64,000 nucleotides of DNA, from positions 2,232,001 through 2,296,000 of the forward strand of contig NZ_CP070353.1 in the NCBI RefSeq assembly GCF_016919405.1. Reading direction: 5' to 3'. The notes beneath the pieces were generated by a model. That model worked only from the letters and a program-made list of their open reading frames with translations, had not been told where the DNA came from and did no database searches. The first letter of the stretch is position 1. Each line of letters begins with the position of its first letter. The stretch is from Ensifer sp. PDNC004. GTDB taxonomy: Bacteria; Pseudomonadota; Alphaproteobacteria; Rhizobiales; Rhizobiaceae. Position numbers and translations under genes: made by a program. Below are positions 410 through 56,879 of the stretch, piece by piece.

Positions 410-413
410 TCTG

Positions 414-15803: not shown

Positions 15804-15806
15804 TTC

Positions 15807-18384: not shown

Positions 18385-18427
18385 TAGGGCTTTAGCCCGT
18401 CTCTTACTGACACAACCAGGCATCTCT

Positions 18428-19835: not shown

Positions 19836-19839
19836 GCGA

Positions 19840-38799: not shown

Positions 38800-38848
38800 A
38801 TGGTGCCCGGAGGCGGATTTGAACCACCGACACGCGGATTTTCAATCC
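38800..38848. repeat. Left att repeat (displaced 3' end of tRNA-Phe)
   Basis: 49 bp identical to 56831-56879: from ATGGTGCCCGGAGGCGG to GATTTTCAATCC. It covers the CCA end, acceptor 3' strand, T arm, variable loop and the anticodon arm of tRNA-Phe on the minus strand. The rest of the tRNA is absent here, so this is the junction farther from the functional tRNA. Confidence 0.95.
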
Positions 38849-39094
38849 AGTGTCATTCAGGCCATTTCAGTACCTTGCAGCGAAAAATCTGTCAAACCTG
38901 ACACCGAAGATCAATCACTTAAGACCGATTTGTCAAACGTCAGCAGCGCTGTTGTCGATGCTGCTCGATGGCTTTCCTTGCACCGAGATGAGTGCGTCGG
39001 GCGCATCGTTCCCACGCTGAAAGAACACTTCGGCTTGCGTGCGATTGAGGCCGTACAGGCCATGGTGATGGCACGCGAGGGCGGCCACGCGTAG
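38819..39094 (+). CDS. Small conserved phage/island protein (start uncertain)
   Basis: Up to 91 residues. The conserved-looking part is the C-terminal ~55 (TDLSNVSSAVVDAARWLSLH, RIVPTLKEHFGLRAIEAVQAMV), a pattern seen in small proteins placed before replication genes in rhizobial elements. In-frame starts are TTG at 38819, which lies inside the att repeat, or TTG at 38930; no ATG or GTG is available before the conserved part. The stop is 1 nt before the next ATG, so the two are coupled. Function is unknown. Confidence 0.6.
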   Translation: MNHRHADFQSSVIQAISVPCSEKSVKPDTEDQSLKTDLSNVSSAVVDAARWLSLHRDECVGRIVPTLKEHFGLRAIEAVQAMVMAREGGHA

Positions 39095-39095
39095 C

Positions 39096-39899
39096 ATGGC
39101 GATCCTCGAGGAGAATGACATCCTGTTCGCGCACAAGGCGCTGAACATCATGACCGGATTGACCGAGGCAACGAAGCGTGTCGCTGCCGCGATCATCGAC
39201 CATTTCAACAAACGCACGGGTCAATGCGATCCCGGCATTGATCGCCTGGCTACGATGCTGGGCATTGATCGTGCGACGGTTATCCGTGCCACAGAGAAGC
39301 TTCACGATCTCGAATTGATCGATAAGGCCAGCCATGGCGGCAAGTCCCATCGCGCAGCATACCGGCCGAACTGGGACCGTTTCCGTGCTGTCGTCGAGGA
39401 CTGGGATGCTCGAATGAAGACCGGTGCAAGCCCGGATGAACAGCCTGCAAAGGTCGCAAGCGTGCGACGTTCAAGGTCGCAAGCGTGCGACGTTAAACGT
39501 CGCAGCCCTGCGACCCAAACCCTTCGAAGTAACCCATCGAATAAACCCATCGAACCGGAGCGAGTGGAAACGCGGCCGGATAAGCCGCAGCCACAGGCGC
39601 CGCAGCGAGCGCAGCAGGGGCTTGGGAGAGGGAGAGAGCGGCCCGCGCAGAGACCCTTGCTGTTGCCGATCAGCGGAGGCAGGAGCGTGAGCCATGCGGA
39701 TGCAGCACGCGCAGCAGCCGAACGGCGCTGGTATGCGCAGCTCCACCGACTTGGCGAAGCGGCCGAGGTCGAGGTGTTGAACTGGATCACGGCAGATCGG
39801 CAGGATGCCGCAACCGAGGCGGAGATGGCGCGGAAAGGTGGTGGACTGGCCTTCATCGTGGCCGCCATGCACCAAGACCGAAGGCAGGCCGCCGGCTGA
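39096..39899 (+). CDS. Winged-helix protein, candidate replication initiator of the element
   Basis: 267 residues. The N-terminal ~90 form a helix-turn-helix/winged helix of the kind seen in phage and plasmid initiators (TKRVAAAIIDHFNKRTGQCD, IDRLATMLGIDRATVIRATEKL, ELIDKASHGGKSHRAAYRPN). A basic, low-complexity middle (residues ~115-200) is encoded by the repeat arrays at 39453-39556. The C-terminal ~60 residues are helical and Ala/Arg-rich. It is the only replication-type candidate in the element. By analogy with initiator genes that contain their own origin, it may bind these repeats. The initiator role is inference. Confidence 0.7.
   Translation: MAILEENDILFAHKALNIMTGLTEATKRVAAAIIDHFNKRTGQCDPGIDRLATMLGIDRATVIRATEKLHDLELIDKASHGGKSHRAAYRPNWDRFRAVVEDWDARMKTGASPDEQPAKVASVRRSRSQACDVKRRSPATQTLRSNPSNKPIEPERVETRPDKPQPQAPQRAQQGLGRGRERPAQRPLLLPISGGRSVSHADAARAAAERRWYAQLHRLGEAAEVEVLNWITADRQDAATEAEMARKGGGLAFIVAAMHQDRRQAAG
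39453..39521. repeat. Three palindromic repeats with exact 23-bp period
   Basis: GTCGCAnnnnTGCGAC occurs at 39453, 39476 and 39499, each followed by a 7-nt spacer, so the period is exactly 23 bp. The first two copies are identical in the 16-bp core (GTCGCAAGCGTGCGAC). They lie inside the winged-helix gene. Because 23 is not a multiple of 3, the copies are read in different frames, so the conservation is at the DNA level. Confidence 0.85.
39518..39556. repeat. Three 13-bp direct repeats adjoining the palindrome array
   Basis: AACCCTTCGAAGT, AACCCATCGAATA and AACCCATCGAACC follow each other without gaps at 39518, 39531 and 39544. The common core is AACCCWTCGAA. They start where the 23-bp array ends, and 13 is likewise not a multiple of 3. 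The layout resembles the iteron-plus-13-mer organisation of replication origins, although these 13-mers are only moderately AT-rich. Confidence 0.8.
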
Positions 39900-40079
39900 G
39901 GGTGCGGCGGGGGGTGGTCTCCGTCTTTCGGCCCTTGGGCGGGACCGGCGGGGGAAGGTTCGCTCTATATTTTTTCTAATTAGGAGCAATTTTCTGTTTT
40001 ATACCAATGAGTTAGGTTGATTTTGAGTGTCCGCAGTTGGCTAATTTCGGAAAAATCTACCCTCTGGCATAAAATCGGA

Positions 40080-41273
40080 ATGCTGAATTGGTTCCGAAAA
40101 TCACCCGCCCTTGAGACCCGCGACAGCTCGTTCGCGTCTCCCGATGAAATGATGCTCGCGCTTTGGACCGGAACGGCCCCCGGCGCGCTCTCGGTCTCCG
40201 GTGTCGCAGCCTTGAAAGTGCCGGCCGTGTCGGCCGCTGTCCGGGTAATTTCGGAGGCCGCCGCTACGCTCGATGTCTGTGTCGTCGAGGTCATGGACGG
40301 CGGCGCCGAAGTGGCCCGCCCGGATCATCCGGTTTCCAGTCTTCTGCGCGGAGAGGCAAATCCTTGGACTTCGGGTTTTGAGCTGATCCGCGACCTGGTT
40401 GCCGATGCGCTGACGCGTAACGAAGGCGGGCTGGCGTGGGTCAACCGCGTGGGTGATGAAGTCCGTGAGGTCATCCGCTACCAGCACAGCGCCATGAGCG
40501 TCGCCTATGACACCATGACGCGCGAGCCGACCTATCGGCTGAACGGCAGCGTTATCAGCGCTCGCAACGTGGTCCACGTCCGGAGCCCCTTCGACGGCTC
40601 CCCGGTATCCCTGGCCGCCAAGGCGATCGGTGTGCTCGCGATCATGGAAACCTATGCGGGCAAGCTCTTCCAGAACGGCGCCAAGCCTTCGGGCGTGATC
40701 GAGATGGAAAAGGATCTCGGGGACGAAGGCAACAAGCGGATGCGCAAGGGCTGGCGGGAGAGCCATGAAGGCTCTGACAACGCCGGCAAGACGGCCATTC
40801 TTTGGGGAGGCGCTACGTTCCGCCCGCTCACGATGGCCTCGACCGACGCGCAGTTTCATGAGCTGCGCACCTTCCAAATCCTCGAAGTCGCGCGCGCCTT
40901 CCGGGTGCCGCCGTCGATGCTCTTCGAACTGGAGCGGGCCACCTGGTCGAACTCCGAACAGATGGGCCGTGAGTTCCTGACCTACACGCTGGAGCCGTGG
41001 TTGCGGACGCTCGAAGGCTCGCTCGGAAGGGCGCTGCTGACGCGCGAAGAGCGCAAGCGGTTCCGCATCGTCTTCGACCGCGACGACCTTACGCGCGCGG
41101 ATCTGGGCGAGCGCGCGTCGGCCTATTCGAGCCTGATTTCGGCGCGCGTCATCAACCCGAACCAAGCCCGCAAGTGGGAAGGCCTGCCGCCCTACGAGGG
41201 CGGCAACGAGTACGTGAACCCGAACATCAGCGCCGCTACGGGCGACGAAACCACCGGAGAAACCGAGGAATGA
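40080..41273 (+). CDS. HK97-type portal protein
   Basis: 397 residues from the ATG reading MLNWFRKS; an upstream in-frame start at 40017 would add 21. It is an HK97/lambda-type portal: SGVAALKVPAVSAAVRVISEAAATL, HPVSSLLRGEANPWTSGFELIRD, FQILEVARAFRVPPSMLFELERATWSNSEQ and a C-terminal FDRDDLTRADLGERASAYSSLI. It forms the dodecameric DNA gate at one capsid vertex. Its stop overlaps the next start (ATGA). Confidence 0.93.
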   Translation: MLNWFRKSPALETRDSSFASPDEMMLALWTGTAPGALSVSGVAALKVPAVSAAVRVISEAAATLDVCVVEVMDGGAEVARPDHPVSSLLRGEANPWTSGFELIRDLVADALTRNEGGLAWVNRVGDEVREVIRYQHSAMSVAYDTMTREPTYRLNGSVISARNVVHVRSPFDGSPVSLAAKAIGVLAIMETYAGKLFQNGAKPSGVIEMEKDLGDEGNKRMRKGWRESHEGSDNAGKTAILWGGATFRPLTMASTDAQFHELRTFQILEVARAFRVPPSMLFELERATWSNSEQMGREFLTYTLEPWLRTLEGSLGRALLTREERKRFRIVFDRDDLTRADLGERASAYSSLISARVINPNQARKWEGLPPYEGGNEYVNPNISAATGDETTGETEE

Positions 41274-41662
41274 AAGATCTCGATGACATCCTCGCCAATG
41301 TCGAGGATCAGGATCGCGGCGCCGAAATGCAGCTCCGCAATCCGGCGACCGGAGAACTGACAGGCCTGATGCTGACGCTTGCAGGTCCGGATTCTCTGAC
41401 GCAGCGCCGCTCGCGGCTTCAGATGGCCGACGATCTGGCTGACCTGGCGCAAGCCGATGGCACCATTACCGCCGAGGTCCGCGAGCGCGTCGCGATCGCA
41501 TCTCTGGCGCGCTGTGTCCTGCGGTGGAAGGTCATGCAGGGCGGCGTCGAGTTGCCTTGCAGCCACACCCACATCATCCGCGTTTTGTCGGTTCCGTGGG
41601 TGCGCGAACAGGTCGATGCCTTTGCCGGTGACCGCACCAAGTTCATGGCGGCGGCGCGATGA
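41270..41662 (+). CDS. Conserved phage protein, tail-chaperone-like
   Basis: 130 residues, translationally coupled to portal (ATGA) and to the protease gene (4-nt overlap). The N-terminus contains a beta-rich part (MQLRNPATGELTGLMLTLAGPD) and the C-terminus a WVREQVDAFAGDRTKF motif preceded by ARCVLRWKVMQGG. This C-terminal pattern recurs in phage proteins near capsid and tail genes that are sometimes described as tail assembly chaperones. I am sure of the gene and unsure of the role; the place between portal and protease is unusual for a chaperone. Confidence 0.7.
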   Translation: MKDLDDILANVEDQDRGAEMQLRNPATGELTGLMLTLAGPDSLTQRRSRLQMADDLADLAQADGTITAEVRERVAIASLARCVLRWKVMQGGVELPCSHTHIIRVLSVPWVREQVDAFAGDRTKFMAAAR

Positions 41663-42204
41663 ACCACCTCGGCCTTTCCACCCGCTATGAGCCGCCGAGC
41701 GATGCCGGCGAGTTTTCCGGCTATGCCGTCATCTGGGGCCAGCGCAACGGCCACAATGAGGTTGTCCAGCGCGGCGCGTTCGCCCGGTCTCTCGCGGTTC
41801 ACCAGCGAGCCGGCACCAAGCCGTTGATGCTCTGGGCGCATGATCCGTCCGAAATCATCGGCGTTTGGTCCGAGATCCGCGAAGACGACACCGGCCTTTT
41901 CGTGCGCGGCAATCTGATCCTCGACATCGACGAGGGCCGTAAGGCGCATGTCCGCCTGAAGGCCGGCGCCGTCAACGGCCTCTCGATCGGGTTCCGTGTA
42001 TCGCCTGGCGGCGAGAAGCGGGGAGCCGGCGGCGTCCGCCTCCTGTCCGCGATTGATATCGCCGAAATCTCCATCGTCGGTCTGCCGAGCGCCAGCGGCG
42101 CGCGGATCACTGACATTCGCAGCTCTGGCCGCTTGAACGAGAGCGCAGCGGCCTTCGTCAAAGCTTGCCGTGAGGCAACGCGCTCTCTTCAGCCAAGGAA
42201 GTGA
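41659..42204 (+). CDS. HK97-family prohead protease
   Basis: 181 residues. Typical caseinolytic-herpes-like fold motifs: FSGYAVIWGQRNGHNEVVQRGAF, catalytic His region PLMLWAHDPSEIIGVW, catalytic Ser in NGLSIGFRV, and IAEISIVGLPS. It cleaves scaffold/capsid precursors during head maturation. It lies directly before the capsid gene, and its stop is 2 nt from the capsid ATG. Confidence 0.92.
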   Translation: MNHLGLSTRYEPPSDAGEFSGYAVIWGQRNGHNEVVQRGAFARSLAVHQRAGTKPLMLWAHDPSEIIGVWSEIREDDTGLFVRGNLILDIDEGRKAHVRLKAGAVNGLSIGFRVSPGGEKRGAGGVRLLSAIDIAEISIVGLPSASGARITDIRSSGRLNESAAAFVKACREATRSLQPRK

Positions 42205-42206
42205 CC

Positions 42207-43358
42207 ATGAAAAACACAGTGCTCGAAACCCGTTCCGAACCGAATGATGCCGATGCGCTCGCCGCTGCATCGGCCGCCGTAGCTGCAATGCAAGCCGGCT
42301 GGACGGATTTTCAGACCCGCGCCGAACAGCAGCTCGGCGGCATCGCGGCTCTTACGACGCGCCTCGATGACATCGAGACCCGCATGAACCGCCCTGGCGG
42401 CTCCGGTGGCGCAACCAGCGACGACGAACGGCCGATTGAACAGCGCGCGTTTTCCAACTTCCTGCGCATGGGCCGTGAGCCGATGGAAGCCGAAGAGATC
42501 CGCGCTCTCATCGTCGGCGATGACACCAAGGGCGGTTATCTCGCGCCGACCGAGTTCGTTGCGGAAGTGGTCAAGGGCCTCGTCGAGCTTTCGCCGGTTC
42601 GTCAGGCCGCCCGCGTCGGCAGCACTTCTTCCGGCGGCGTCATCCTGCCGAAACGCACGGGCCGTCCGACCGCCCATTGGGTCGGTGAGGATGAGGAGCG
42701 CAAGGAAACCGGCTCCAGCTACGGCCAGCTCGAAATCCCGGTCCATGAGGCCGCCTGCTATGTCGACGTGAGCCTGCGTCTCCTCGAAGACAGCGCCATC
42801 AACGTCGATGCTGAAGTGGCTTCGGACCTGTCGGAAGAGTTCGGTCGCATCGAAGGGCCGGCCTTCATCAGCGGCGACGGCGTGAAGAAGCCGGAAGGCT
42901 TCATGCAGGCGGCCGGCATTAAGGAGTTCAAGAACGGCCACGTCGCGAACATCCAGCCCGATGCCCTGGTCAAGATGATGTATTCGCTGCCGGAAGCCTA
43001 CCGCAACAGCGCGTCCTGGATGCTCAACGGCACCTCACTCGGCATCATCCGCACGCTGAAAGACGGACAGGGCAACTATCTCTGGCAGCCTTCCTACCAG
43101 GCCGGCCAGCCGTCCACGCTTCTCGGTCGCCCTGTCATCGACGCCGTGGACATGCCCGATATCGCCGAGAACGCTTTCCCGATCGTCTTTGGCGATTTCA
43201 ACCGCGCCTATCGGATCTACGACCGCGTGCAGCTCAGCGTCCTGCGCGATCCCTACACCATGGCTCACAAGGGCCTTGTCCGCTTCCATGCCCGCCGTCG
43301 TGTTGGTGGCGGCACGGTGCTCGGTGAGGCTCTGCGCAAGCTCAAGATGGCGGCTTGA
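42207..43358 (+). CDS. Major capsid protein (HK97 fold)
   Basis: 383 residues from ATG 42207, preceded by AAGGAAGTG. The first ~95 residues are charged and helical, the expected scaffolding delta domain removed by the protease. Then the HK97 core follows: GGYLAPTEFVAEVVKGLVELSPVRQ, VGEDEERKETGSSYGQLEIPVHE, LLEDSAINVDAEVASDLSEEFG, SWMLNGTSLGIIRTLKDGQGNYLW and the C-terminal FHARRRVGGGTVL. Length and motif order are normal for the family. Confidence 0.95.
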   Translation: MKNTVLETRSEPNDADALAAASAAVAAMQAGWTDFQTRAEQQLGGIAALTTRLDDIETRMNRPGGSGGATSDDERPIEQRAFSNFLRMGREPMEAEEIRALIVGDDTKGGYLAPTEFVAEVVKGLVELSPVRQAARVGSTSSGGVILPKRTGRPTAHWVGEDEERKETGSSYGQLEIPVHEAACYVDVSLRLLEDSAINVDAEVASDLSEEFGRIEGPAFISGDGVKKPEGFMQAAGIKEFKNGHVANIQPDALVKMMYSLPEAYRNSASWMLNGTSLGIIRTLKDGQGNYLWQPSYQAGQPSTLLGRPVIDAVDMPDIAENAFPIVFGDFNRAYRIYDRVQLSVLRDPYTMAHKGLVRFHARRRVGGGTVLGEALRKLKMAA

Positions 43359-43390
43359 GCCCGTCGCCCTTTCCAACGGAGATCAACGAC

Positions 43391-43777
43391 ATGCGGGACA
43401 TCGTCCACAACCTCAAGATCGTGCAGGCCATCGCGCCGGCCGTACTTGCCGCTACCACCGAAGGCGCGGCCATCGACCTCAAGGGCGTCGAGAGTATCGC
43501 CCTGGTCATCAATTCCGGCGCGATCGTCGGGGCTGGCGACTTCACGGCCAAGCTTCAGGAAAGCGATACGACCACGCCGGCGGATTTCACCGACGTTCCG
43601 GACGACTACGTTCTCGGCGAGCTGCCGGAAGATCTTGCGGCCAACAGCGTCGCCAAGGTCGGCTATCGCGGCCACAAACGTTACGTGCGCCTGGTGCTGA
43701 CCAAGAACGGCGGCACCTCGATCGCAGCCGGCGCCGTCGCTGTCATGGGCGGCGTTCACGATCGGCCGGTGGCCTGA
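43391..43777 (+). CDS. Capsid-adjacent phage protein
   Basis: 128 residues from ATG 43391, preceded by GGAGATCAACGAC. It is predicted beta-rich with no signal peptide (ESIALVINSGAIVGAGDFTAKL, YRGHKRYVRLVLTKNGGTSI). Proteins of this size right after the capsid gene are often minor head or decoration proteins, but I do not recognise a family. Its stop overlaps the ATG of the HNH gene by 1 nt. Confidence 0.75.
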   Translation: MRDIVHNLKIVQAIAPAVLAATTEGAAIDLKGVESIALVINSGAIVGAGDFTAKLQESDTTTPADFTDVPDDYVLGELPEDLAANSVAKVGYRGHKRYVRLVLTKNGGTSIAAGAVAVMGGVHDRPVA

Positions 43778-44133
43778 TGCCGGTTAAGGGGTCTCGCATA
43801 TGCGGTTGTGGGCGTCTGGTGCCGTCCGGAACCGCCTGCGCATGCGAGATCCGACGCGCTCGCGAGCGGAAAGCTCGGCATGACGCCAAGCGTCCGACCG
43901 CTCGCGAGCGTGGTTATACGGCGGAATGGGAGCGCGAGAGCAAGGCGTTTCTGAGGGAATGCCCCGCCTGCCGGCGCTGCGGCGCCCCTGCCACCCTCGT
44001 CGACCATATCCAGCCTCACAAGGGCAACCAGCGGCTCTTTTGGAACCGCGCCAATTGGCAGCCTCTCTGCCGTCCCTGCCACAACAGCGCCAAGCAATCG
44101 GAAGAGCGGCGCAACCAGCAAAAGGATTACTGA
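43777..44133 (+). CDS. HNH endonuclease
   Basis: 118 residues. Zinc-binding and catalytic motifs are visible: CPACRRCGAPATLVDHIQPH (Cys pair plus the catalytic D-H), FWNRANWQPLCRPCHNSAK (N and second Cys pair). The basic N-terminus also has Cys pairs (CGCGRLV, CACE). HNH proteins of this type in cos-packaging phages cooperate with the terminase for DNA cutting. It is embedded in the head gene operon. Confidence 0.92.
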   Translation: MPVKGSRICGCGRLVPSGTACACEIRRARERKARHDAKRPTARERGYTAEWERESKAFLRECPACRRCGAPATLVDHIQPHKGNQRLFWNRANWQPLCRPCHNSAKQSEERRNQQKDY

Positions 44134-44134
44134 C

Positions 44135-44623
44135 ATGCCTATTGTCGCGACTGCCGGAAGCAAGGTGTTCATCGGCGAGGCGCTTGCCGCCAAGAACGTC
44201 GATTTTGTCGCTGCTGACTTTACCGACATCGACTGGACCGAGATCGGCTCGATGGAGAACATCGGTTCGCTCGGCGACACCAGCGCAGAGATCACCTTTG
44301 ACGACATCGGCAAGAACCGGACGCAGAAGCTCAAGGGCACGCGCAACGCCGGAAACTGCGAACTGGTGATGGGTATCGACTATGCCGACGCCGGTCAGGT
44401 CGCATTGCTTGCCGCCGAAAAGACGCCGCACGATTACGCCTTCAAGATCGAGTTCAACGATAAGCCGGCCACTGGCGCCAGCCCGAAGAACTCGCAGCGC
44501 CTGTTCATTGCCAAGGTGATGAGCGCGGCCGAAGCGCTCGACCAGGCGAACAACGTCATGAAGCTGAACGCGACGCTGGGCATCAACTCCAACGTCGTTC
44601 GCGTCAACGCATCGGCCGCCTAA
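44135..44623 (+). CDS. Phage tail tube-like protein
   Basis: 162 residues of the beta-rich tail-tube type (VDFVAADFTDIDWTEIGSMENIG, AEITFDDIGKNRTQKLKGTRNAG, VMSAAEALDQANNVMKLNATLGIN). The pattern resembles lambda-V/HK97-type tube proteins. It begins 1 nt after the HNH stop. Its placement before the connector genes, instead of after them, is unusual. A minor head role cannot be excluded. Confidence 0.7.
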   Translation: MPIVATAGSKVFIGEALAAKNVDFVAADFTDIDWTEIGSMENIGSLGDTSAEITFDDIGKNRTQKLKGTRNAGNCELVMGIDYADAGQVALLAAEKTPHDYAFKIEFNDKPATGASPKNSQRLFIAKVMSAAEALDQANNVMKLNATLGINSNVVRVNASAA

Positions 44624-44624
44624 A

Positions 44625-48086: not shown

Positions 48087-48095
48087 GAGATCACG

Positions 48096-50510: not shown

Positions 50511-51153
50511 CCCGCTCTCCCTTCCTGACCTGCCTTGGCGTGAGTGTGAGTTCAACCCCAACGATCCGGTCTCAACCGAGCGCATGCAGGGTCGTCGAAC
50601 AGAAATGGTCACGTTCGGAACGCCCTGGTGGACAGCAACCTTCTCGACGAACTTCCTCGAGCCGCAACAGTACGGCGCGGCCGATGCGTTCACGATGAAG
50701 GCCGGCGCTCGAGGCGCGTTCCTTGGTTACGATGTCTTTCGGCCGAGACCGATTGCCTACGACAACGGCCGGCCTCTTGCCTTGGTCAAGGCGGCCGGCG
50801 GCCCGTTCACCGGCGATGCGTCCCTGTCTCAGATCATCGACAGTCGAACGGTTATGGTCTCGGGTCTGCCTGCCGGCTTCACCCTGATCGAGGGCGACTA
50901 TGTGGCTTTCAGCATGACGGCGCTTAAACGCTCGCTTCATCGCGTCATGCAGGTAGCCGTTGCGAACAGTGCAGGGGTCGCCACGCTCAGCATCCTTTTC
51001 CCGCTGGACCTGCAACATTTCACGCTCGCCTCGGCGGTGCATTTCGAGAAGCCGTCCACGGTCATGATGATCGATCCCGGAAGCCTCTCGGCGCCGAAGG
51101 GTTGGAACAACCGCTCTGTGACCTTTTCTGCAACGGAGATGTTTTTCTCATGA
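50503..51153 (+). CDS. Phage distal tail protein (putative)
   Basis: 216 residues from ATG 50503, overlapping the tape-measure stop by 8 nt. It is a beta-rich soluble protein (TEMVTFGTPWWTATFSTNFL, MVSGLPAGFTLIEGDYVAFSM, HRVMQVAVANSAGVATLSI). Position after the tape measure and beta content suggest a tail-tip component. I do not recognise a named family with certainty. Confidence 0.75.
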   Translation: MINPLSLPDLPWRECEFNPNDPVSTERMQGRRTEMVTFGTPWWTATFSTNFLEPQQYGAADAFTMKAGARGAFLGYDVFRPRPIAYDNGRPLALVKAAGGPFTGDASLSQIIDSRTVMVSGLPAGFTLIEGDYVAFSMTALKRSLHRVMQVAVANSAGVATLSILFPLDLQHFTLASAVHFEKPSTVMMIDPGSLSAPKGWNNRSVTFSATEMFFS

Positions 51154-51737
51154 TCACTAATCCCGACCTTTTGAATGCTCTTGAAGGTGGCCGCCTGGCG
51201 GCGCTGGAGCTGGTGCGTTTCGACCTGCCCGGTCGGTCGGTCGGCTACCATCGCGGTGGCCGACCCTACACCTACAACGGCCTGGTCTATCTTCCCAATC
51301 GTTGGCTCCAGTCCGGAGGCATGAACTCTTCGGTTGGGACTGCCGTAGGGACGCGAACACTTGTTTTCTCGAACATTCCGACGAGCAATCCGGAGGATGC
51401 GATGGCGGCGATCGAACTGCTGGAATACCAGAACTCGACCGTTATCGTCTCAGTTCTGGCCGGCGTTCCGGAATCGGATGAGGTGCTGGGCGTCCTCGTT
51501 TCACACATCTACGAAATTGATCAGATCCGCTACGAAGATGGTCCGCTCAATGGTGCCGAGCGATCCATGACGATGATGATCGACCTTCAGCCTCCCGGTC
51601 GGTCTGCGCGTGGACAGACGTTGGTTAAGCGGTCGACTGCGGAACAACAGTTTGACAATGACGAAACAGACACGGGCCTCGAATACGTTGCCACGGTCGG
51701 TTCCGTCCCTGAAGAGTGGGGGCAGATCAGCCGATGA
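51150..51737 (+). CDS. Phage tail-tip protein (putative, DUF2163-like)
   Basis: 195 residues. The start NPDLLNALEGGRLAALELVRFDL and GGRPYTYNGLVYLPN recall baseplate or hub-associated proteins of alphaproteobacterial siphoviruses (DUF2163 type). The C-terminal part includes RGQTLVKRSTAEQQF. The start overlaps the previous stop (ATGA) and the stop overlaps the next start. No hub, peptidase or fibre gene follows, so the tail module ends early here. Confidence 0.7.
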   Translation: MITNPDLLNALEGGRLAALELVRFDLPGRSVGYHRGGRPYTYNGLVYLPNRWLQSGGMNSSVGTAVGTRTLVFSNIPTSNPEDAMAAIELLEYQNSTVIVSVLAGVPESDEVLGVLVSHIYEIDQIRYEDGPLNGAERSMTMMIDLQPPGRSARGQTLVKRSTAEQQFDNDETDTGLEYVATVGSVPEEWGQISR

Positions 51738-52120
51738 GGTTCGACCCCTACTTGAAGCGGCTGTCCAAGGCTATGCGCCGCTCGCTGGCAACGGGCAAGA
51801 AGCCCGATCTGCCGGCTGGCGCCGGTCTCTATTGGTCCTGGTTTCGCGAGTTGTCGGCCGCAAGAACGTGGCATGCCTCGGGGCCAAATCCCATTAGCCA
51901 TTCCGAGATCCTGTCTTGGGCGACGGCGTTCGGTTGGCCGATTGGCCCACGGCACGTTGCCATCATCCGCGCCCTCGACGATGCGTGGATCGAGCATTTC
52001 CACACGAAGCGCCGCCCGACAAAGGACACATCAAAGTCCTTGCCGGATGGAACCAAGACCTTACCGCCGCGCTCGAAACATCCAGTTTCGCCAGCGCTAT
52101 TCGACGCTATGTTTGGGTGA
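51734..52120 (+). CDS. Conserved phage protein with C-terminal LFDxMF motif
   Basis: 128 residues. SEILSWATAFGWPIGPRHVAIIRALDDAWIEHF has the pattern of small phage proteins in tail modules where a W-E/H-V-x-x-I-R-x-L-D core is conserved. The C-terminus after a Ser/Lys/Pro-rich linker is SPALFDAMFG. The same short motif ends the neighbouring protein. The start overlaps the preceding stop by 4 nt. The role is unknown; tail assembly is a guess from position. Confidence 0.7.
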   Translation: MRFDPYLKRLSKAMRRSLATGKKPDLPAGAGLYWSWFRELSAARTWHASGPNPISHSEILSWATAFGWPIGPRHVAIIRALDDAWIEHFHTKRRPTKDTSKSLPDGTKTLPPRSKHPVSPALFDAMFG

Positions 52121-52124
52121 TTTC

Positions 52125-52916
52125 ATGAAGGGCAATGCGCTTTGGGCTATCTATCGACATGGAAAGCCAACGGCTCCGAAAACCGAGGCCATCTTCAAGG
52201 GCGCGGCGCGCAAGCCCGTCATTTCGCGAGTGATGGACGTGATGCGCGATTGGCGCTCGACCCCGTTCGAAAATGAAGGCTCCACCATCGCCGGCCTACG
52301 GAGCGGATTGTGCTCTCAGGGTTATGGCTGGGCCAGTGCCGATCGAGAGGCGCGCTCGATCGTGGCGGATTGCTTGCGCTATCTCGGGGCAGTTCGTCCG
52401 AACTGGGACCAGGGCCAGCCGGAATTCACGGTGTCCGATGAGAACTGCAAATGGTGTTCAGCGGAGCTGCCACCAGAAGCCTCGGAAGGGCTGCGCCAGT
52501 TCCGGTTCTGCTCGACCGAGTGCGCCAAGGCCGCGATTGCACAGCGATCGGCCGACAACTGGCTGCGCAACAGCAACATCGCCTGGTCCGCCTATCGTAT
52601 GGTGCTCAAGTCCCGCATGCCTCAGCGGGTATGTGAGGCGTGCGGTATCAGATACTCGACGGTGCGGGAGAAGTCGGAATCCAAGTATTGTTCGAAGGCA
52701 TGCTACAACAAGGGGCGACTGAAGTACGTTCCGAAGACCTGCCCGACGTGCAAGCAGGGCTTCCAGCCCATCCGCGCCACGTCAGTCTACTGCTCTGTTG
52801 CCTGCAAACACCCCAAAGCGACAATCGTTTTGACGCCCCGCCTTTTCGATCGCATGTTTAAGCAATCAATGAGCAACGGGGCTCAAAGCTCCGAACACAT
52901 TCGCGGCACTGGCTAA
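52125..52916 (+). CDS. Protein with three Cys4 zinc clusters and LFDxMF motif
   Basis: 263 residues from ATG 52125. The N-terminal ~100 are of unknown fold. Then come three C-x2-C...C-x3-C clusters: C108/C111-C129/C133, C170/C173-C189/C193 and C206/C209-C223/C227, each with a FCS/YCS-type second half (FCSTEC, YCSKAC, YCSVAC). They resemble treble-clef or FCS-like zinc fingers. Near the C-terminus TPRLFDRMF repeats the motif of the previous protein. It is probably nucleic-acid- or protein-binding. I know no characterised relative. Confidence 0.7.
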   Translation: MKGNALWAIYRHGKPTAPKTEAIFKGAARKPVISRVMDVMRDWRSTPFENEGSTIAGLRSGLCSQGYGWASADREARSIVADCLRYLGAVRPNWDQGQPEFTVSDENCKWCSAELPPEASEGLRQFRFCSTECAKAAIAQRSADNWLRNSNIAWSAYRMVLKSRMPQRVCEACGIRYSTVREKSESKYCSKACYNKGRLKYVPKTCPTCKQGFQPIRATSVYCSVACKHPKATIVLTPRLFDRMFKQSMSNGAQSSEHIRGTG

Positions 52917-53414
52917 AAGTGCCCAGAGTGCAAGAACTCCGGCGAACGCTGCCAGCAGGCGCGTAGCACCAACGGCGTCAGTCTTCCGGGGTTGGGGGTT
53001 CTGATCGGTGCGGTAAACCATGAGAGGGTTGGCCCAGTCGTCATAAACGTCTGCCGCCGACTGAAAGTTAATCCACGCCATGAGGCCGGCGAAGAGAACG
53101 AACGCGATGCCTGCAATATTCCATTTTGCAGCCAGTAGCAGCGCCATCATCAGCTCGGGACGCGCCGGATCCTTGAGTGAATTTATCGCGTAGATTGCGC
53201 CACCGTGGACGGCCAGACCTGAAGCGAGAAGCCATTTTCCGTAATCGATATTGGCCTTGAAACTCATCTCCCGAGCCGACTTGTAAAATTCGTACTTTTC
53301 GCGAGCGTAGTATTGATATCGCTCCCGCCTGGCCGGGTCCGACCATTCCTCTACCAACACTGATTCATCATCGAACTGTCGTGATGCTGGAGGATTGCTT
53401 TCGTTGTTGTTCAT
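52866..53414 (-). CDS. Three-helix membrane protein, possible accessory (moron) gene
   Basis: 182 residues. A charged, Tyr-rich N-terminus of about 60 residues (ERYQYYAREKYEFYKSAREM) precedes three membrane helices at about 61-80, 98-117 and 152-173. It is minus-strand in a mostly plus-strand element, and its 3' end overlaps the zinc-cluster gene by 51 nt. Such genes beside prophage regulators are often lysogenic-conversion or superinfection-exclusion genes. That is a contextual inference only; no family is recognised. Confidence 0.7.
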   Translation of the reverse strand: MNNNESNPPASRQFDDESVLVEEWSDPARRERYQYYAREKYEFYKSAREMSFKANIDYGKWLLASGLAVHGGAIYAINSLKDPARPELMMALLLAAKWNIAGIAFVLFAGLMAWINFQSAADVYDDWANPLMVYRTDQNPQPRKTDAVGATRLLAAFAGVLALWALLASAANVFGALSPVAH

Positions 53415-53462
53415 GCTCCCCCCAACGCGTCAGGATGAAATAAATGTCCGCGTTGCGGACAT

Positions 53463-53942
53463 TTATTCGTTGTCTTTGGTATCGTTACGAGGCCTGTCGG
53501 TAGTGTCTTCTACCGCCCATATTTCTTTGGCGTCTGCGATGATCTTTTTCAGGTCTTCGTCACTTTTGAAGTTGTTCGCGACCCCGACCAGCGAACGCAC
53601 CAAAAGCACCATCCGGGTAAGTTCCGTCAGCGCCTTTGCACTGGCTGACGTCAGTTGACGTTCAAGACTTGTGGCTTCTCCGCTTTGCACTCTCGCGATC
53701 ACTTCATGCGACAAGGGAAGAGTCTTGGTCGCTGCGTCGTACGCGCTCTTGAACTTTTCGTTCAACTCGGCCCGATGCTCGTCGAACATCAGGCCAATCT
53801 GGCAAAGCCGTCTAATGGCCTCGCCTCTGGATCTGATGCGATGCTGAAATGACCAATCATCTATGGCGCTGACCTCGCTCGGGGTCATCATGATCGGAAC
53901 CCGCTGGTCTTTCAGCTCTCTGCTTTCGGTGTCGTCAGTCAT
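53463..53942 (-). CDS. Ribbon-helix-helix-type regulator A
   Basis: 159 residues from ATG 53942 (MTDDTESRELKDQ); an in-frame start at 54011 would cross the operator region. Residues ~15-50, VPIMMTPSEVSAIDDWSFQH plus RIRSRGEAIRRLCQIGL, look like a ribbon-helix-helix (Arc/MetJ-like) DNA-binding domain. The C-terminal ~100 residues are helical and may oligomerise. It is divergent from a shorter protein with a clearly related domain. The role as element repressor is inferred. Confidence 0.75.
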   Translation of the reverse strand: MTDDTESRELKDQRVPIMMTPSEVSAIDDWSFQHRIRSRGEAIRRLCQIGLMFDEHRAELNEKFKSAYDAATKTLPLSHEVIARVQSGEATSLERQLTSASAKALTELTRMVLLVRSLVGVANNFKSDEDLKKIIADAKEIWAVEDTTDRPRNDTKDNE

Positions 53943-53971
53943 GTTTTGGCCGCCCGTTTGGGAATATGGAC

Positions 53972-54038
53972 AAGTTGCACAACTTTTCAGTTGACGCAAG
54001 CACGGACTCACTCATATTAACTTGTGCAACTTGCACAA
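53972..54038. promoter_or_regulatory. Divergent control region with TTGCACAA operators
   Basis: TTGTGCAA-C-TTGCACAA at 54022-54038 is a perfect 17-bp palindrome, and AAGTTG-CA-CAACTT at 53972-53985 contains a third TTGCACAA octamer. Between them lies TTGACG (53991-53996), followed 17 nt later by ATATTA (54014-54019), a fair sigma-70 promoter for the plus-strand gene. The palindrome would cover its start point. The first site overlies the likely promoter region of the minus-strand gene. Confidence 0.75.
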
Positions 54039-54055
54039 ACATGGAGGTGAGAGAC

Positions 54056-54247
54056 GTGCGTGAAAAGCCACGCGTGCCAAAAACGGAACGCATTCCGATC
54101 ATGTTCGAGAAGGAACTGATTGAGCAGGTCGACGAATTCAGTTTCCAGCGGCGCATCCGAACCCGCGCTGCCACCCTGCGTCTCCTGGTCAAAATTGGAC
54201 TAGCAGCGGCAAGCATTGAAACAGAAAAAGGCTCCGTCTCGGCCTAG
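54056..54247 (+). CDS. Ribbon-helix-helix-type regulator B (63 aa)
   Basis: GTG 54056 is chosen because GGAGGTGAG lies 8 nt before it; the ATG at 54041 lacks a ribosome-binding site and abuts the operator. The protein is essentially one ribbon-helix-helix domain (IPIMFEKELIEQVDEFSFQR, then RIRTRAATLRLLVKIGL), closely parallel to regulator A: PIM...SFQxRIRxR...R.L..IGL. It is the size of Arc-like phage repressors. A terminator overlaps its stop, so it is expressed alone. Confidence 0.75.
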   Translation: MREKPRVPKTERIPIMFEKELIEQVDEFSFQRRIRTRAATLRLLVKIGLAAASIETEKGSVSA

Positions 54248-54268
54248 AGAACCGACGGAGCCTTTCTT
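54230..54268. terminator. Bidirectional intrinsic terminator after regulator B
   Basis: GGCTCCGTC (54230-54238) pairs with GACGGAGCC (54254-54262). TTTCTT follows on the plus strand and, read on the minus strand, TTTTTC follows. It overlaps the last codons of regulator B. Confidence 0.8.
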
Positions 54269-54288
54269 GCACCAGAAAGGAAATCTGA

Positions 54289-54534
54289 ATGCCCCAACAG
54301 ACTACACTACTGGCGAAGTCCTGCGCAAGAAGCGCAACGGATGCAGCAATCCGCGCAGACGACGCCATTGCCATTCTCCGGGTTGTGCTCCTCGCAATGC
54401 GCGGTGAAGCCGCGCCACTCTCTGAATTCAACTGGGATGGGCTCCGAGGCTCCATAGGCCTTGCGCTGGACAACGTTCTGGAAACCCGCGATTTCGCGCT
54501 AGAAATTGTGGCGGAGGCCGAGCAGCATGGGTAA
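54289..54534 (+). CDS. Small hypothetical element protein (81 aa)
   Basis: 81 residues, soluble and mostly helical (RADDAIAILRVVLLAMRGEA, GLRGSIGLALDNVLETRDFALEIVAEAEQHG). The ATG follows AGAAAGGAAATCTGA. The C-terminal half has the character of small phage regulatory or accessory proteins. It overlaps the next gene by 8 nt. No domain is recognised. Confidence 0.6.
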   Translation: MPQQTTLLAKSCARSATDAAIRADDAIAILRVVLLAMRGEAAPLSEFNWDGLRGSIGLALDNVLETRDFALEIVAEAEQHG

Positions 54535-55180
54535 CGCTCTTTCCCGCCGCGCCTTACTGGCGGCTCCACTATTGGTAACGGCATGTGCCGCTGCGCCGGC
54601 TGTTGCAGCACCCGTGTCAATCAGCGACGAACTCAAGTGGCTCATCGGCACCTATGATGACATCGCGGCACAGCGCGACACTATACGTGCTGAAATCGTG
54701 CGGATTATCGATTTGCCCGACCAGCCATGCCCGGCGGAACTCGTCTTGAGCGAGATCGCCACACGTGAGATGGACTATTCTCCGGACTGGCGGGACAAGC
54801 CGCTTTACTCCGAGGCGGGGATCCAGAAGTACTTTACCTGGGCGACCAGCATGGTTTGGCTTCCGGAGCGGTCGAGATACTTGGACCGGATGGCTGCTGA
54901 CCGAGATAAAGCGCTCTCACTCTACCGCATGCGTCGGCAGGCACGAGCCCAATGGCTTGCCGAAACCGGCATGGAAGCGCTCGAAGATCAGCACAGCGCC
55001 CTCGACGGTAAACTTCATGAAATCGAGAAGTGGTTGCGGGCTTACACCTGCCGATCTCTCGGCGACGTGATCGCCATCGCCGCATTTGCAGACCGATGGC
55101 TTCCCGACGACGAACTAGACATCGACGCCCGCAGTGACCTGTTGCGGGCCATCTCAGCTTACGCAACGGCGGCGGCTTGA
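54527..55180 (+). CDS. Exported lipoprotein-like protein of the element
   Basis: 217 residues from ATG 54527. The N-terminus has a twin Arg (SRRALLAAPLLVTACAAAPA) with a hydrophobic stretch and a lipobox-like VTAC, so a lipoprotein or Tat-type signal peptide is likely. The mature part is helical and rich in Trp and Arg (DDIAAQRDTIRAEIVRIID, MRRQARAQWLAETGMEALED). It is coupled to the upstream 81-aa gene. An exported protein in a prophage accessory position could alter the host envelope. The function is unknown. Confidence 0.65.
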   Translation: MGNALSRRALLAAPLLVTACAAAPAVAAPVSISDELKWLIGTYDDIAAQRDTIRAEIVRIIDLPDQPCPAELVLSEIATREMDYSPDWRDKPLYSEAGIQKYFTWATSMVWLPERSRYLDRMAADRDKALSLYRMRRQARAQWLAETGMEALEDQHSALDGKLHEIEKWLRAYTCRSLGDVIAIAAFADRWLPDDELDIDARSDLLRAISAYATAAA

Positions 55181-55186
55181 GCGGAC

Positions 55187-55212
55187 AAGGGTCGGCAAAT
55201 CTGCCGACCCTT
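55187..55212 (+). terminator. Hairpin upstream of the excision/integration genes
   Basis: AAGGGTCGGCA (55187-55197) pairs perfectly with TGCCGACCCTT (55202-55212) around AATC; CACCAGTTTTC follows. It separates the accessory gene from the HTH-HTH-integrase group and may end upstream transcription. Confidence 0.7.
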
Positions 55213-55236
55213 CACCAGTTTTCAACGAGGATGGAT

Positions 55237-55434
55237 ATGGCGACGGACGGAAAGCGGCCACTGGGCATCAAGGAAATCGCGCACGAACTCGGGTGCAGCA
55301 CGCGGACAATCCGCCGCTATCACGCCGAGGGCAAAATCGGCACGTACAAGATCGGGGCCAATACCAGCCCGATCAAAATGCGGCGTGCGGATCTCTCCAA
55401 GTTCATCCGGAAAAGAGGAAGTGAGGAACGCTGA
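55237..55434 (+). CDS. Small MerR/excisionase-like DNA-binding protein
   Basis: 65 residues from ATG 55237, which is better spaced from the GAGG at 55226 than the ATG at 55231. One winged helix-turn-helix: PLGIKEIAHELGCSTRTIRR, YHAEGKIGTYKIG, MRRADLSKFIRK. This is the size and pattern of excisionase or MerR-type phage proteins. It overlaps the start of the next gene by 1 nt, in an operon with the integrase. Confidence 0.8.
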   Translation: MATDGKRPLGIKEIAHELGCSTRTIRRYHAEGKIGTYKIGANTSPIKMRRADLSKFIRKRGSEER

Positions 55435-55670
55435 TGGCGACCGCCACGCTCAATCTCAAGGTATCACCTCGGCGGATGCTCTCCCTGAAGGAGGCTGCCG
55501 ATTATTGCGGTTTGACCGCAAAGCGTTTCCCAGCCGAGTGCCGGGTTTCGCCGGTCGCTATGCCATCAGGCACCCGCCTGTATGACATGCGCGACCTCGA
55601 TGGCTGGTTGGATGCGCTCAAGGATGGCGTGGCCGATAGCGACGATGAAATCCTCGGGAAGCTCGGCTGA
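55434..55670 (+). CDS. AlpA-like helix-turn-helix protein
   Basis: 78 residues: MLSLKEAADYCGLTAKRFPAEC, PSGTRLYDMRDLDGWLDALK. This is the pattern of AlpA/excisionase-type helix-turn-helix proteins that bind near attachment sites or activate integrase genes. It shares 1 nt with both neighbours (TGATG junction with the integrase). Either this or the preceding gene could be the recombination directionality factor. Confidence 0.8.
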   Translation: MATATLNLKVSPRRMLSLKEAADYCGLTAKRFPAECRVSPVAMPSGTRLYDMRDLDGWLDALKDGVADSDDEILGKLG

Positions 55671-56761
55671 TGGCAGATCGCGAGAAACGGCAGAACAAGT
55701 ACAAGGGCTGGCAGATATTTCGGGACAAAAAGCCGCCCTTTGAGTGGCGCGCATATCACCGCAAGAGCCGCGAGAAGATCGACTGCACGAAGTTCGAGCC
55801 TTACACGCTCGCCTTCGATGTCGAAGTGCATCGGATCAACGAGCTGCATAAGGTCAAGGAAGCAAAGCCGGGAACCCTCGGCATGCTCATCAAGAAGTAT
55901 CGCGCCAGCCCCAAATTTCAGAAACGCGCCAAGCGGACGCAGAGCGACTACCAGAAGGTGTTCGATTGGCTGAAGCCGATTGAGGACACACCGCTGGAGC
56001 GGTTCACACGAAGCTTTGTCGCGAAGATCCGCGACAAGGCCGAACTCCAGCACAAATTCCGGTTTGCCAACCATGTCCGCTCGGTCCTGTCGATTATCTT
56101 CAACTGGGGCCTTGAGTACGACTATGTGAAGGAGAACCCGGTCGAAGCTGTGAGCGTTGCCGAGCGCCCGCGAAGCCTGGGGGACGCAAACAGGCCGTGG
56201 ACCGATGCCGAGCGCGATACCGTGCTTGCCGCCCTGCCCGCGCATATGAGCCTGCCGATCGGCCTCATGATGTTCTACGGCCTCGATCCTCAAGATGCGT
56301 TGGCGCTGCCGAAGACGGCCGTAGTATCGGCCGGGATCGACACGCGCCGGCACAAGACAGGCCAGCCCGTTTATCTCCCGATCTTCGAGCCGGTAGCGGA
56401 TGCCTTGGCGAAGGGGCCGAAGCATGACGCGATTACGCTCTGCGCCAACAGCCGAGGCCAGCCGTGGACCTACAACGGCTTCAGCACGAACTGGGACAAG
56501 CTGAAGAAGAAGCTGGAGAAGGCCGGGACGGTTCAGCCGGGGCTGACGCTCAAGGGGCTTCGTCACACGGTAGGGACGATCCTTGCCGAGATGGGCAAGG
56601 ACAACGGCACCATCGCTCTCGTGCTCGGCCACGCGACCGAAGCCATGGCAAAGCACTACTCAAGGCGGGCCGATCGCACGCGTCAGACCACTGCCGCTGT
56701 CGCCGATTTTGAGGCCGAACTGAACAAACGAAAAACGAAGGTTGTCAAACCAGCTTCGTAA
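55670..56761 (+). CDS. int: Tyrosine-type site-specific integrase
   Basis: 363 residues: an N-terminal DNA-binding arm (KYKGWQIFRDKKPPFEWRAYHRK), a core-binding domain around 85-165 and a C-terminal catalytic domain. Visible active-site parts are LKGLRHTVGTILAEMG (R present, with Lys where His is usual), LGHATEAM (His) and HYSRRAD (nucleophilic Tyr). At the first catalytic-Arg position the sequence reads FYGLDPQDALALP, with Asp where G-L/T-R is expected. It ends 70 nt from tRNA-Phe, its target. The identification is firm; the active-site differences are noted separately. Confidence 0.93.
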   Translation: MADREKRQNKYKGWQIFRDKKPPFEWRAYHRKSREKIDCTKFEPYTLAFDVEVHRINELHKVKEAKPGTLGMLIKKYRASPKFQKRAKRTQSDYQKVFDWLKPIEDTPLERFTRSFVAKIRDKAELQHKFRFANHVRSVLSIIFNWGLEYDYVKENPVEAVSVAERPRSLGDANRPWTDAERDTVLAALPAHMSLPIGLMMFYGLDPQDALALPKTAVVSAGIDTRRHKTGQPVYLPIFEPVADALAKGPKHDAITLCANSRGQPWTYNGFSTNWDKLKKKLEKAGTVQPGLTLKGLRHTVGTILAEMGKDNGTIALVLGHATEAMAKHYSRRADRTRQTTAAVADFEAELNKRKTKVVKPAS

Positions 56762-56830
56762 CTCTGTCAAACCGGATTACATGAGAAGGAATGCAGATAT
56801 GGGAAAATCTAGGCGCAACAAGGGCTTAGA

Positions 56831-56879
56831 ATGGTGCCCGGAGGCGGATTTGAACCACCGACACGCGGATTTTCAATCC
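56831..56879. repeat. Right att repeat (3' part of the intact tRNA-Phe)
   Basis: 49 bp identical to 38800-38848. Here the repeat continues into the 5' part of tRNA-Phe (to 56907), so the integrated element restores the complete tRNA. Confidence 0.95.

What the first reader, a model, noticed from the sequence alone, without database searches (positions are those of the whole stretch)
38800..56879. Very compact capsid- and tail-encoding element without recognisable lysis, polymerase or fibre genes
Between perfect 49-bp tRNA-Phe repeats lie about 18 kb holding portal, protease, capsid, HNH, connectors, both terminases, tail tube, tape measure, two tail proteins, a candidate initiator with origin-like repeats, regulators, AlpA-like protein and integrase. 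Every structural gene looks intact, with 1-8 nt overlaps, so it does not look decayed. Yet I find no endolysin, holin, spanin, helicase, polymerase or receptor-binding protein. Capsid-forming phage satellites (PICI-like) combine int, an AlpA-like regulator, their own replication module and capsid/terminase genes while borrowing other functions. This element resembles them but also carries tail genes, so it could be a satellite type that keeps its own tail, or a minimal prophage.
Basis: partly seen in the sequence, partly recalled or inferred. Interest (0 to 1): 0.85.

Follow-up and report, generated by a model that had tools for sequence, protein, structure and literature searches.

The report
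Tail-building phage satellite lacking its tip
This 18-kb piece of bacterial DNA looks like one member of a widespread, apparently undescribed group of phage parasites that make their own head and tail tube but seem to rely on another phage for the receptor-binding tail tip and for breaking the cell open.

Summary
In detail: a 49-bp tRNA-Phe duplication bounds an 18.0-kb element with intact head, packaging, neck, tail-tube and tape-measure genes, an O-like initiator with iterons, excisionase-like proteins and an integrase, and no recognisable central tail fibre (J), fibre or lysis gene.

It is not a lone deletion. The backbone recurs across Alphaproteobacteria (94 non-redundant TerL groups); complete copies are 15.5-19 kb (18 of 26 at 17-18.2 kb) at ten kinds of tRNA. 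A J profile that recovers J in two independent rhizobial phages hits 1 of 132 loci, a rearranged contig end. Pfam finds no lysis or J domain in 126 accessory proteins of complete relatives. Some relatives are head-only, like capsid-forming PICIs.

The two 'tail proteins' are a distal tail protein (T5 Dit fold) and a probable hub, 49% and 66% identical to phi2LM21 genes that stand just before DUF6950 and J. The element stops there. In relatives this slot is empty, or holds Dit, gpM-like or other genes; a second tube-protein paralogue occurs only with an empty slot.

Best reading: a satellite that builds head and tail and borrows the receptor-binding tip and lysis. Helper dependence is inferred, not shown.

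The parts
38800..38848 (.). attL, 49-nt copy of the tRNA-Phe 3' part
38819..39094 (+). small ORF, 91 aa if the TTG is used; start uncertain; phrog_24797, unknown
   Evidence: related ORF in the same region of some relatives
39096..39899 (+). replication initiator, HTH_36 / lambda O-like
   Evidence: PF13730 2.5e-7; phrog_391/345 O-like
39449..39554 (.). iteron-like repeats inside the initiator gene (23 bp x2.4; 13 bp x2.9), candidate origin
40077..41273 (+). portal protein
   Evidence: PF04860 3.5e-84
41270..41662 (+). tail-assembly-chaperone-like protein (phrog_313)
41659..42204 (+). prohead protease S78
   Evidence: PF04586 5e-26
42201..43358 (+). major capsid protein (Phage_capsid)
   Evidence: PF05065 1.5e-84
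43388..43777 (+). phrog_5707, unknown; conserved between capsid and HNH genes in relatives
43771..44133 (+). HNH endonuclease, probably of the packaging module
   Evidence: PF01844 4.5e-7
44135..44623 (+). tail tube protein
   Evidence: phrog_158 3.4e-22
44625..44921 (+). gp6-like head-tail connector
   Evidence: PF05135
44909..45346 (+). HK97 gp10-like neck/tail protein
   Evidence: PF04883
45343..45756 (+). gp17-like tail completion protein
   Evidence: PF11367
45753..46073 (+). head completion protein
   Evidence: PF05521
46070..46516 (+). small terminase (Terminase_4)
   Evidence: PF05119
46449..48086 (+). large terminase; first possible start taken, the true start may lie downstream
   Evidence: PF20441, PF03354
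48096..50510 (+). tape measure protein, 804 aa; C-terminal part resembles TMPs of some hub-carrying rhizobial phages
50503..51153 (+). distal tail protein (Dit ring), first gene of the TMP-to-chaperone slot (ORF open from 50488)
   Evidence: phrog_1302; model pLDDT 91, best PDB matches T5-type Dit
51150..51737 (+). probable tail hub protein, second gene of the slot
   Evidence: phrog_11779/2048; 53-66% to phage homologues that precede DUF6950 and J; residues 1-150 match tail-tip chains of T5 and other siphophages
51740..52120 (+). tail assembly chaperone (Phage_TAC_18)
   Evidence: PF23812 8e-14
52122..52916 (+). HNH/zinc-type nuclease-like protein, common after the chaperone in relatives
   Evidence: phrog_1271
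52866..53414 (-). membrane protein, three hydrophobic stretches by eye, function unknown
   Evidence: DUF4395 below cut-off; 21 proteins listed, the query included, none with a named function
53463..54011 (-). ribbon-helix-helix-type regulator (weak)
   Evidence: phrog_4738 0.0036 and unknown families
53966..54247 (+). transcriptional repressor-like, ribbon-helix-helix type (fold label recalled)
   Evidence: phrog_4738 1.3e-7
54289..54534 (+). small protein, no family hit
54527..55180 (+). protein with a possible Tat-like signal (by eye), no family hit; start uncertain (54614 by the gene caller)
55177..55434 (+). AlpA/MerR-like regulator, excisionase candidate
   Evidence: PF00376, PF12728; phrog_66
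55434..55670 (+). second small protein before the integrase, xis-like by position only
   Evidence: phrog_7338, unknown function, 0.0014
55670..56761 (+). tyrosine integrase
   Evidence: PF00589 1.2e-9; phrog_1
56831..56879 (.). attR, overlapping tRNA-Phe 56832-56907 (-)

Best explanation
The element is an integrative phage satellite. SHOWN: it encodes its own head, packaging, neck, tail tube, tape measure, distal ring and a probable hub protein, and its gene order ends where full-length phages continue with DUF6950, the central fibre J, fibres and lysis. The same backbone recurs as 15.5-19-kb tRNA-integrated units without those genes. INFERRED: on helper induction it excises, replicates from its O-like initiator/iterons, packages its DNA into its own capsid, and its tape measure, chaperones and distal ring dock onto a tail-tip (J) complex made by a helper phage; the tube then polymerises to the length set by its own tape measure, and helper lysis frees the particles. 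So it would steal the receptor-binding tip and lysis, where capsid-forming PICIs steal the whole tail. The TMP-to-chaperone slot (empty, Dit, gpM-like, or Dit plus hub) would be an exchangeable adaptor fitting different helper tips.
For: Recurrence: TerL relatives at E<=1e-100 in 56 of 394 genomes of the same family and 8 of 385 of the class, own genome included (TerL only). 131 loci with a called TerL (window included; L093 of the 131 fetched has none) form 94 groups; of 72 with portal+capsid on >=12 kb, 49 carry >=4 of 6 tail genes, 13 none of that set, 10 one to three. Size and ends: 15.5-19.0 kb between tRNA-type repeats in 25 relatives plus the window. No tip/lysis: J and DUF6950 profiles give 1 and 0 hits in 132 loci; in three independent phages the J profile finds 2, DUF6950 1. 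Pfam on 126 accessory proteins: no lysis or J domain, but primase/helicase-type replication domains, TAC_11, gp17 and gpM. Largest non-core gene, tape measures aside, 612 aa against 758-1543 aa for J. Truncation point: hub homologue followed by DUF6950 and J in 9 of 9 prophages, phi2LM21 and 10 of 11 viral contigs, sets that overlap. Folds: Dit, hub. dN/dS 0.05-0.34 for tail genes in three pairs of relatives (dS above 1 in two pairs). Adaptor pattern in 39 non-redundant elements: slot gene 13, none with a second gene behind the tube gene; slot empty 26, of which 13 have a tube paralogue and one an unassigned gene (Fisher p 0.0014, or 0.0009 with that one). L169/L172 share 97% of TerL, yet one has Dit and the other the paralogue. 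Two resident, apparently full prophages with Dit, hub-family, DUF6950, J and endolysin genes.
Against: No induction, particle or transfer data. No resident phage carries a close hub homologue (one search finds only the element itself; resident hubs are 16-18% identical), so the helper is not identified. 12-13 of 39 elements have neither adaptor form. The exclusion pattern is not significant after correcting for kinship (median p 0.0625, or 0.125 with L146 recoded; never in the same direction). The hub model is weak in residues 153-195. The endolysin profile found 1 of 3 independent phages and the holin profile was mixed with an endolysin piece, so lysis absence rests on Pfam; J or lysis genes of unknown families would be missed. 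Genes in relatives were called by a simple home-made caller that misses some.
Confidence: 0.67

Rival explanations
1. A minimal self-sufficient prophage: one of the unassigned genes is a novel small receptor-binding protein and lysis is achieved by unknown small genes or by host death.
For: All head and tail-tube genes are intact; the element has its own initiator and integrase; several accessory genes have no family.
Against: No conserved unassigned structural gene follows the tape measure: in 26 of 39 non-redundant relatives the chaperone follows it within 134 nt; no non-core gene above 612 aa in complete elements, tape measures aside; the gene after the chaperone is HNH-like; accessory genes vary between elements.
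Confidence: 0.16
2. A decayed prophage that recently lost J, fibres and lysis by deletion.
For: Dit and hub are 49% and 66% identical to phi2LM21 genes that stand next to DUF6950 and J; a decayed relative exists (L054, no head genes, transposase gene upstream of TerS).
Against: Many relatives in several bacterial families lack the same genes with similar size and tRNA ends; tail genes of relatives are under purifying selection; no window head gene matched phi2LM21 at the cut-off used.
Confidence: 0.05
3. A capsid-forming satellite that uses complete helper tails, the tail genes being used for something else (interference with helper tail assembly) or only in some hosts.
For: Relatives with the same terminase and no recognised tail gene exist (L050-L052, L153, L159, L160); cf-PICIs take whole tails (PMC10690885, passages).
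Against: A full tube-building set (tube, tape measure, two chaperone-like genes, gp10, gp17, head completion) is kept intact and, in relatives, under purifying selection; interference would hardly need all of them.
Confidence: 0.1

Closest known systems
[quoted passage not shown] Alqurainy et al. 2023, not held, known here through passages of PMC10690885 and PMC10803314)
   Same: Integrase, AlpA-like regulator, own replication gene, own portal, protease, capsid, connectors, HNH, TerS and TerL; direct-repeat ends at a specific site; under 20 kb; no lysis genes found.
   Different: Adds tail tube, tape measure, tail chaperones, tail completion, Dit and hub; 18 kb against a 14-kb average; lies in Alphaproteobacteria, not among the main cf-PICI hosts listed in PMC10803314.
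Streptomyces satellites MulchRoom and MiniFlayer (PMC10690885)
   Same: Small satellites (14.8 and 17.4 kb) with their own capsid and packaging genes.
   Different: Direct terminal repeats and virulent helpers; no primase-type replication genes; no tail-tube genes reported in the parts read (the long MulchRoom tail is attributed to the helper), whereas here tube and tape measure are encoded.
Sinorhizobium phage phi2LM21 and related rhizobial siphoprophages
   Same: TMP-Dit-hub gene order, 49% (Dit) and 66% (hub) identity; the record also gives a tRNA-Phe attachment site.
   Different: Continue with DUF6950, J, fibres, chitinase and putative holin; different capsid, portal and terminase types; 46.6 kb.
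Gene transfer agents such as RcGTA
   Same: Compact head and tail gene set in Alphaproteobacteria; hub fold similarity (6tba).
   Different: Recalled: RcGTA has no integrase or att sites and encodes its own distal fibre protein; the element has an integrase, att repeats and no such protein.

Membership tests
cf-PICI | own capsid, protease, portal, connectors, TerS, TerL and HNH | tested here: met
cf-PICI | integrase, AlpA-like regulator, own replication gene | tested here: met
   the AlpA-like protein hits HTH_17/MerR, not an AlpA-named family, and no primase was found in the window (primase-type domains occur in relatives)
cf-PICI | no tail genes (whole tail taken from the helper) | tested here: not met
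   tube, tape measure, gp10, gp17, chaperones, Dit and hub present
cf-PICI | induction and mobilisation by a helper phage | not testable with these tools
   needs induction and transfer assays
complete temperate siphophage | central tail fibre/receptor-binding protein | tested here: not met
complete temperate siphophage | lysis module | tested here: not met
   PHROGs finds an endolysin in one resident prophage and a holin in the other
phage satellite (general) | recurs as a discrete integrated unit with its own ends | tested here: met
phage satellite (general) | spreads only with a helper | not testable with these tools
   inferred from missing tip and lysis genes
gene transfer agent | no integrase or attachment sites (recalled) | tested here: not met
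   integrase and 49-bp att repeats

The most novel reading that the evidence does not exclude
An alphaproteobacteria-wide lineage of 'tip-stealing' satellites: they build head, tube and a tail of their own length, take only the J receptor-binding complex and lysis from a helper, and adapt to different helper tips by swapping a ring protein (Dit, gpM-like or a tube paralogue, sometimes with the hub) at fixed adaptor positions.
Probability: 0.5. Interest if true: 0.87.

Novelty: new variant of a known kind. Interest (0 to 1): 0.76.

Why it matters
Known satellites are sorted by what they steal: whole particles, capsid parts, or the whole tail. A common class that makes head and tail and lacks only the receptor-binding tip would fill the gap between capsid-forming islands and true phages, would show where a siphophage tail can be cut and still be completed in trans, and may explain many ~17-kb 'incomplete prophages' in rhizobia, roseobacters and sphingomonads. 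The adaptor slot makes a testable prediction about which helper phage each satellite uses.

Tried and rejected
DNA-level search of the whole element: no match in phages; plasmid hits cover 1% of the query, the repeat at its two ends. TerL and tape measure against phages give only remote hits, all under 60% identity. Dit in viral contigs found nothing by pattern scan.

Accessory proteins of 25 complete relatives (24 distinct; L117 duplicates L085): 162 cluster representatives of >=70 aa were listed. 148 were scanned by PHROGs (only the first 25 of 124 families are displayed, so single-member hits there are mostly unseen); 14 were left out, 6 because scanned and 8 because short. By Pfam: 58 of 60 downstream representatives of >=125 aa (an integrase-like and a tape-measure protein left out) and 26 upstream ones plus 42 of the shorter downstream ones (all 15 and 23 families displayed). 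Some entries of the complete set rest on short repeats (L082 16, L132 16, L079 18, L056 19 nt).

Controls of the profile search: the five control loci had given sequences to the profiles, so they are not independent; one search added three independent phages: J found in 2 (Mesorhizobium phage vB_MseS-P1, Rhizobium phage RHph_X2_26; not Pseudomonas phage Jack), DUF6950 in 1, endolysin in 1; the holin profile held an endolysin piece and is of little value. A J profile without the two resident prophages still finds them (E about 3e-34).

Several relatives first taken as tailless carry other tape measures (L055, L082 by PHROGs; L058 by cluster), so 'no tail gene of this set' (13 groups) is not 'tailless', and two of the 13 (L094, L096) are remote phage-like loci. 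A clean match of TMP C-terminus to helper type was sought and is only suggestive. The lone J hit, L173, lies on the opposite strand at the contig start beside a cut capsid gene. In four hub-carrying phage loci (L178, L179, L197, L201) an ORF of about 230 aa stands between hub and DUF6950 genes. In one search I first counted 14 second genes; one (L146) is not in the tube-protein cluster, so 13 are paralogues. HNH2 as a receptor-binding protein: not supported, HNH-type hits. The membrane protein as a holin: not supported.

Literature: searches showed no description of satellites with their own tail tube in the listings (some listings cut); most subscription papers are not held. Seen as passages: PMC11389934, PMC10803314, PMC10721106, PMC4936722, PMC13345588; PMC10690885 as outline, first part of Results and passages. 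All others: listing and abstract start only.
Full report
Observation. The window carries an 18.0-kb element between perfect 49-nt repeats, the right one overlapping an intact tRNA-Phe gene. Families assigned by Pfam and PHROGs: O-like initiator, portal, tail-chaperone-like protein, protease, capsid, phrog_5707, HNH, tail tube, connector, gp10, gp17, head completion, TerS, TerL, tape measure, distal tail protein, a second tail protein, TAC_18 chaperone, HNH-like protein, membrane protein, repressor-like proteins, excisionase-like proteins and integrase. No lysis, J, fibre, polymerase or helicase family was hit. The iterons inside the initiator gene are real.

It is a recurring entity. TerL relatives (E<=1e-100) occur in 56 of 394 genomes of the same family, in 35 of 109 genera, and in 8 of 385 genomes of the class, the own genome included (TerL alone, gene order not checked in all). 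With the window, 131 of these 132 have a called TerL (L093 has none) and fall into 94 groups at 98% TerL identity. A few are remote phage-like loci (L094-L097). Of 72 groups with portal and capsid on at least 12 kb, 49 carry at least four of six tail genes (tube, gp10, gp17, tape measure, TAC_18, phrog_313 chaperone), 13 none, 10 one to three. The usual order is portal-chaperone-protease-capsid-phrog_5707-HNH-tube-connector-gp10-gp17-head completion-TerS-TerL-tape measure-(slot)-TAC_18-HNH2-regulators-xis-int. Twenty-five copies with repeats at tRNA genes, plus the window, are 15.5-19.0 kb long, 18 of the 26 at 17.0-18.2 kb, at tRNA genes for Gln, Thr, Arg, Val, Gly, Ser, Cys, Leu, Glu and Phe.

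No tip, no lysis. Profiles from 22 J proteins (first 620 residues) and 23 DUF6950 proteins were run on all ORFs of 131 related loci plus the window: 1 and 0 hits; endolysin and holin profiles gave 0 and 0. The control loci in that call had helped to build the profiles. In three independent phages the J profile found the J/megatron of two rhizobial phages and missed Pseudomonas phage Jack, DUF6950 was found in one, endolysin in one, and the holin profile proved to be mixed. The J hit (L173) is at a contig start, on the opposite strand, next to a cut capsid gene. The broader test is Pfam: in 126 accessory proteins of complete relatives it finds regulators, primase, AAA and DnaB-type replication domains, ParE, Fic, DUF4365, DUF4747, a TAC_11, a gp17, a connector and a gpM, and no lysis or J domain. 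J proteins of reference phages are 758-1543 aa; the largest non-core gene of complete elements, tape measures aside, is 612 aa.

Where the element stops. Its Dit is 49% and its second tail protein 66% identical to phi2LM21 genes (63% over the whole protein). In nine prophages of related genomes (L178-L186), in phi2LM21, and in 10 of 11 viral contigs the second protein is followed by DUF6950 and a J, in four loci with one ORF of about 230 aa in between (the eleventh locus ends inside DUF6950; the sets overlap). Mesorhizobium phage vB_MseS-P1 is annotated in the analogous order tape measure, distal tail protein, hub protein, peptidase, megatron. A model of the Dit (pLDDT 91) matches T5-type Dit chains (TM by query 0.52-0.69, E 2e-9 to 2e-5); the second protein (pLDDT 67, residues 1-150 useful) matches tail-tip chains of T5, DT57C, R4C, T1, JBD30, Chi, Sf11 and RcGTA (E 5e-7 to 5e-4, TM by query 0.38-0.57). 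That the T5 chain is the hub pb3 is recalled; so this protein is probably the hub. In lambda the distal ring gpM joins tube and tip, the hub gpL and J form the last ring, the tape-measure C-terminus lies in the tip, and tape measure plus chaperones start tube polymerisation (PMC10721106, passages). The element thus ends at the ring/hub level and lacks DUF6950 and J.

An adaptor slot. Between tape measure and TAC_18, 26 of 39 non-redundant relatives with all markers have no gene (gap up to 134 nt) and 13 have one or two: seven of the Dit family (window included), three gpM-like, three other. Among the TerL loci, Dit plus hub occurs in the window and in L054 only. Between tube and connector 14 of the 26 slot-empty elements have a second gene, 13 of them a tube-protein paralogue and one (L146) unassigned; none of the 13 with a slot gene has one (Fisher p 0.0014, or 0.0009 counting L146; rows are not independent). 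On the TerL tree the slot state changes at least 12 times and the paralogue at least 10; in independent pairs that differ in the slot the paralogue never goes the same way (mean 4.2 opposite, 3.8 no difference; median p 0.125; with L146 counted 5.2, 2.8 and 0.0625), so the pattern is consistent but not proven. L169 and L172 share 97% TerL, 94% portal, 93% capsid, yet one has Dit and the other the paralogue. I read these as alternative distal-ring adaptors; those with neither may use the helper's ring. Tail genes show dN/dS 0.05-0.34 in three pairs of relatives (dS saturated in part), so they are maintained; this was not measured for the window itself.

Helper candidates. The genome holds two apparently full prophages, judged by gene content (C2 about 988-1014 kb, and C2 about 4134 kb running over the contig ends to about 10 kb), each with a Dit-like gene, a phrog_2048 protein, a DUF6950-type gene, a 1292-aa J and an endolysin-like gene; a holin was identified by family in one. 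Their hub proteins are only 16-18% identical to the element's. Hub-type phages like phi2LM21 are closer in the tip; hub homologues occur in 5 of 15 other genomes of the same genus. One pair of viral contigs with the same genome identifier holds a satellite (L098) and a hub-type prophage (L206).

Mechanism and status. Shown: gene set, ends, recurrence, no recognised tip or lysis gene, folds of Dit and (moderately) hub, maintenance of tail genes in relatives. Inferred: helper induction, docking on helper J, own tail length, helper lysis. It works like a capsid-forming PICI but fails that family's defining 'no tail' feature, so I file it as a new variant of capsid-encoding satellites, not as a cf-PICI.

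Noticed in passing
window 37896-38693: C-terminal part of another tyrosine integrase (PF00589) ends 107 bp left of attL: likely remnant of an older island at the same tRNA-Phe.
   Followed up: partly
G000 C2:980000-1019999 and C2:4130000-4152503 plus 1-20000 (L192-L196): Two resident siphoprophages with very similar distal tail modules (1292-aa J, endolysin-like gene); the second runs over the ends of the contig, which suggests a circular chromosome cut inside a prophage.
   Followed up: partly
L098 and L206 (viral contigs of genome identifier 2643221626): A tailed satellite and a hub-type full-length prophage in the same genome; the last residues of the satellite's tape measure resemble phi2LM21-type tape measures.
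   Followed up: partly
L050, L051, L153, L159, L160: Relatives with the same terminase but no recognised tail genes, cf-PICI-like, in Alphaproteobacteria; L050/L051 sit in the same Martelella genome as a tailed one (L049).
   Followed up: partly
L054 (Neorhizobium sp. SOG26): The only other Dit-plus-hub element among the TerL loci; its head genes are missing and a Mu-type transposase gene lies directly upstream of TerS.
   Followed up: partly
L050, L063, L115 and other relatives: Accessory genes with DUF4365, DUF4747, Fic, P63C, ParE and HTH plus Peptidase_M78 domains, possible defence or toxin-antitoxin cargo.
   Followed up: no
L178, L179, L197, L201: In some hub-type phages an ORF of about 230 aa is inserted between the hub and DUF6950 genes, on either strand.
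   Followed up: no
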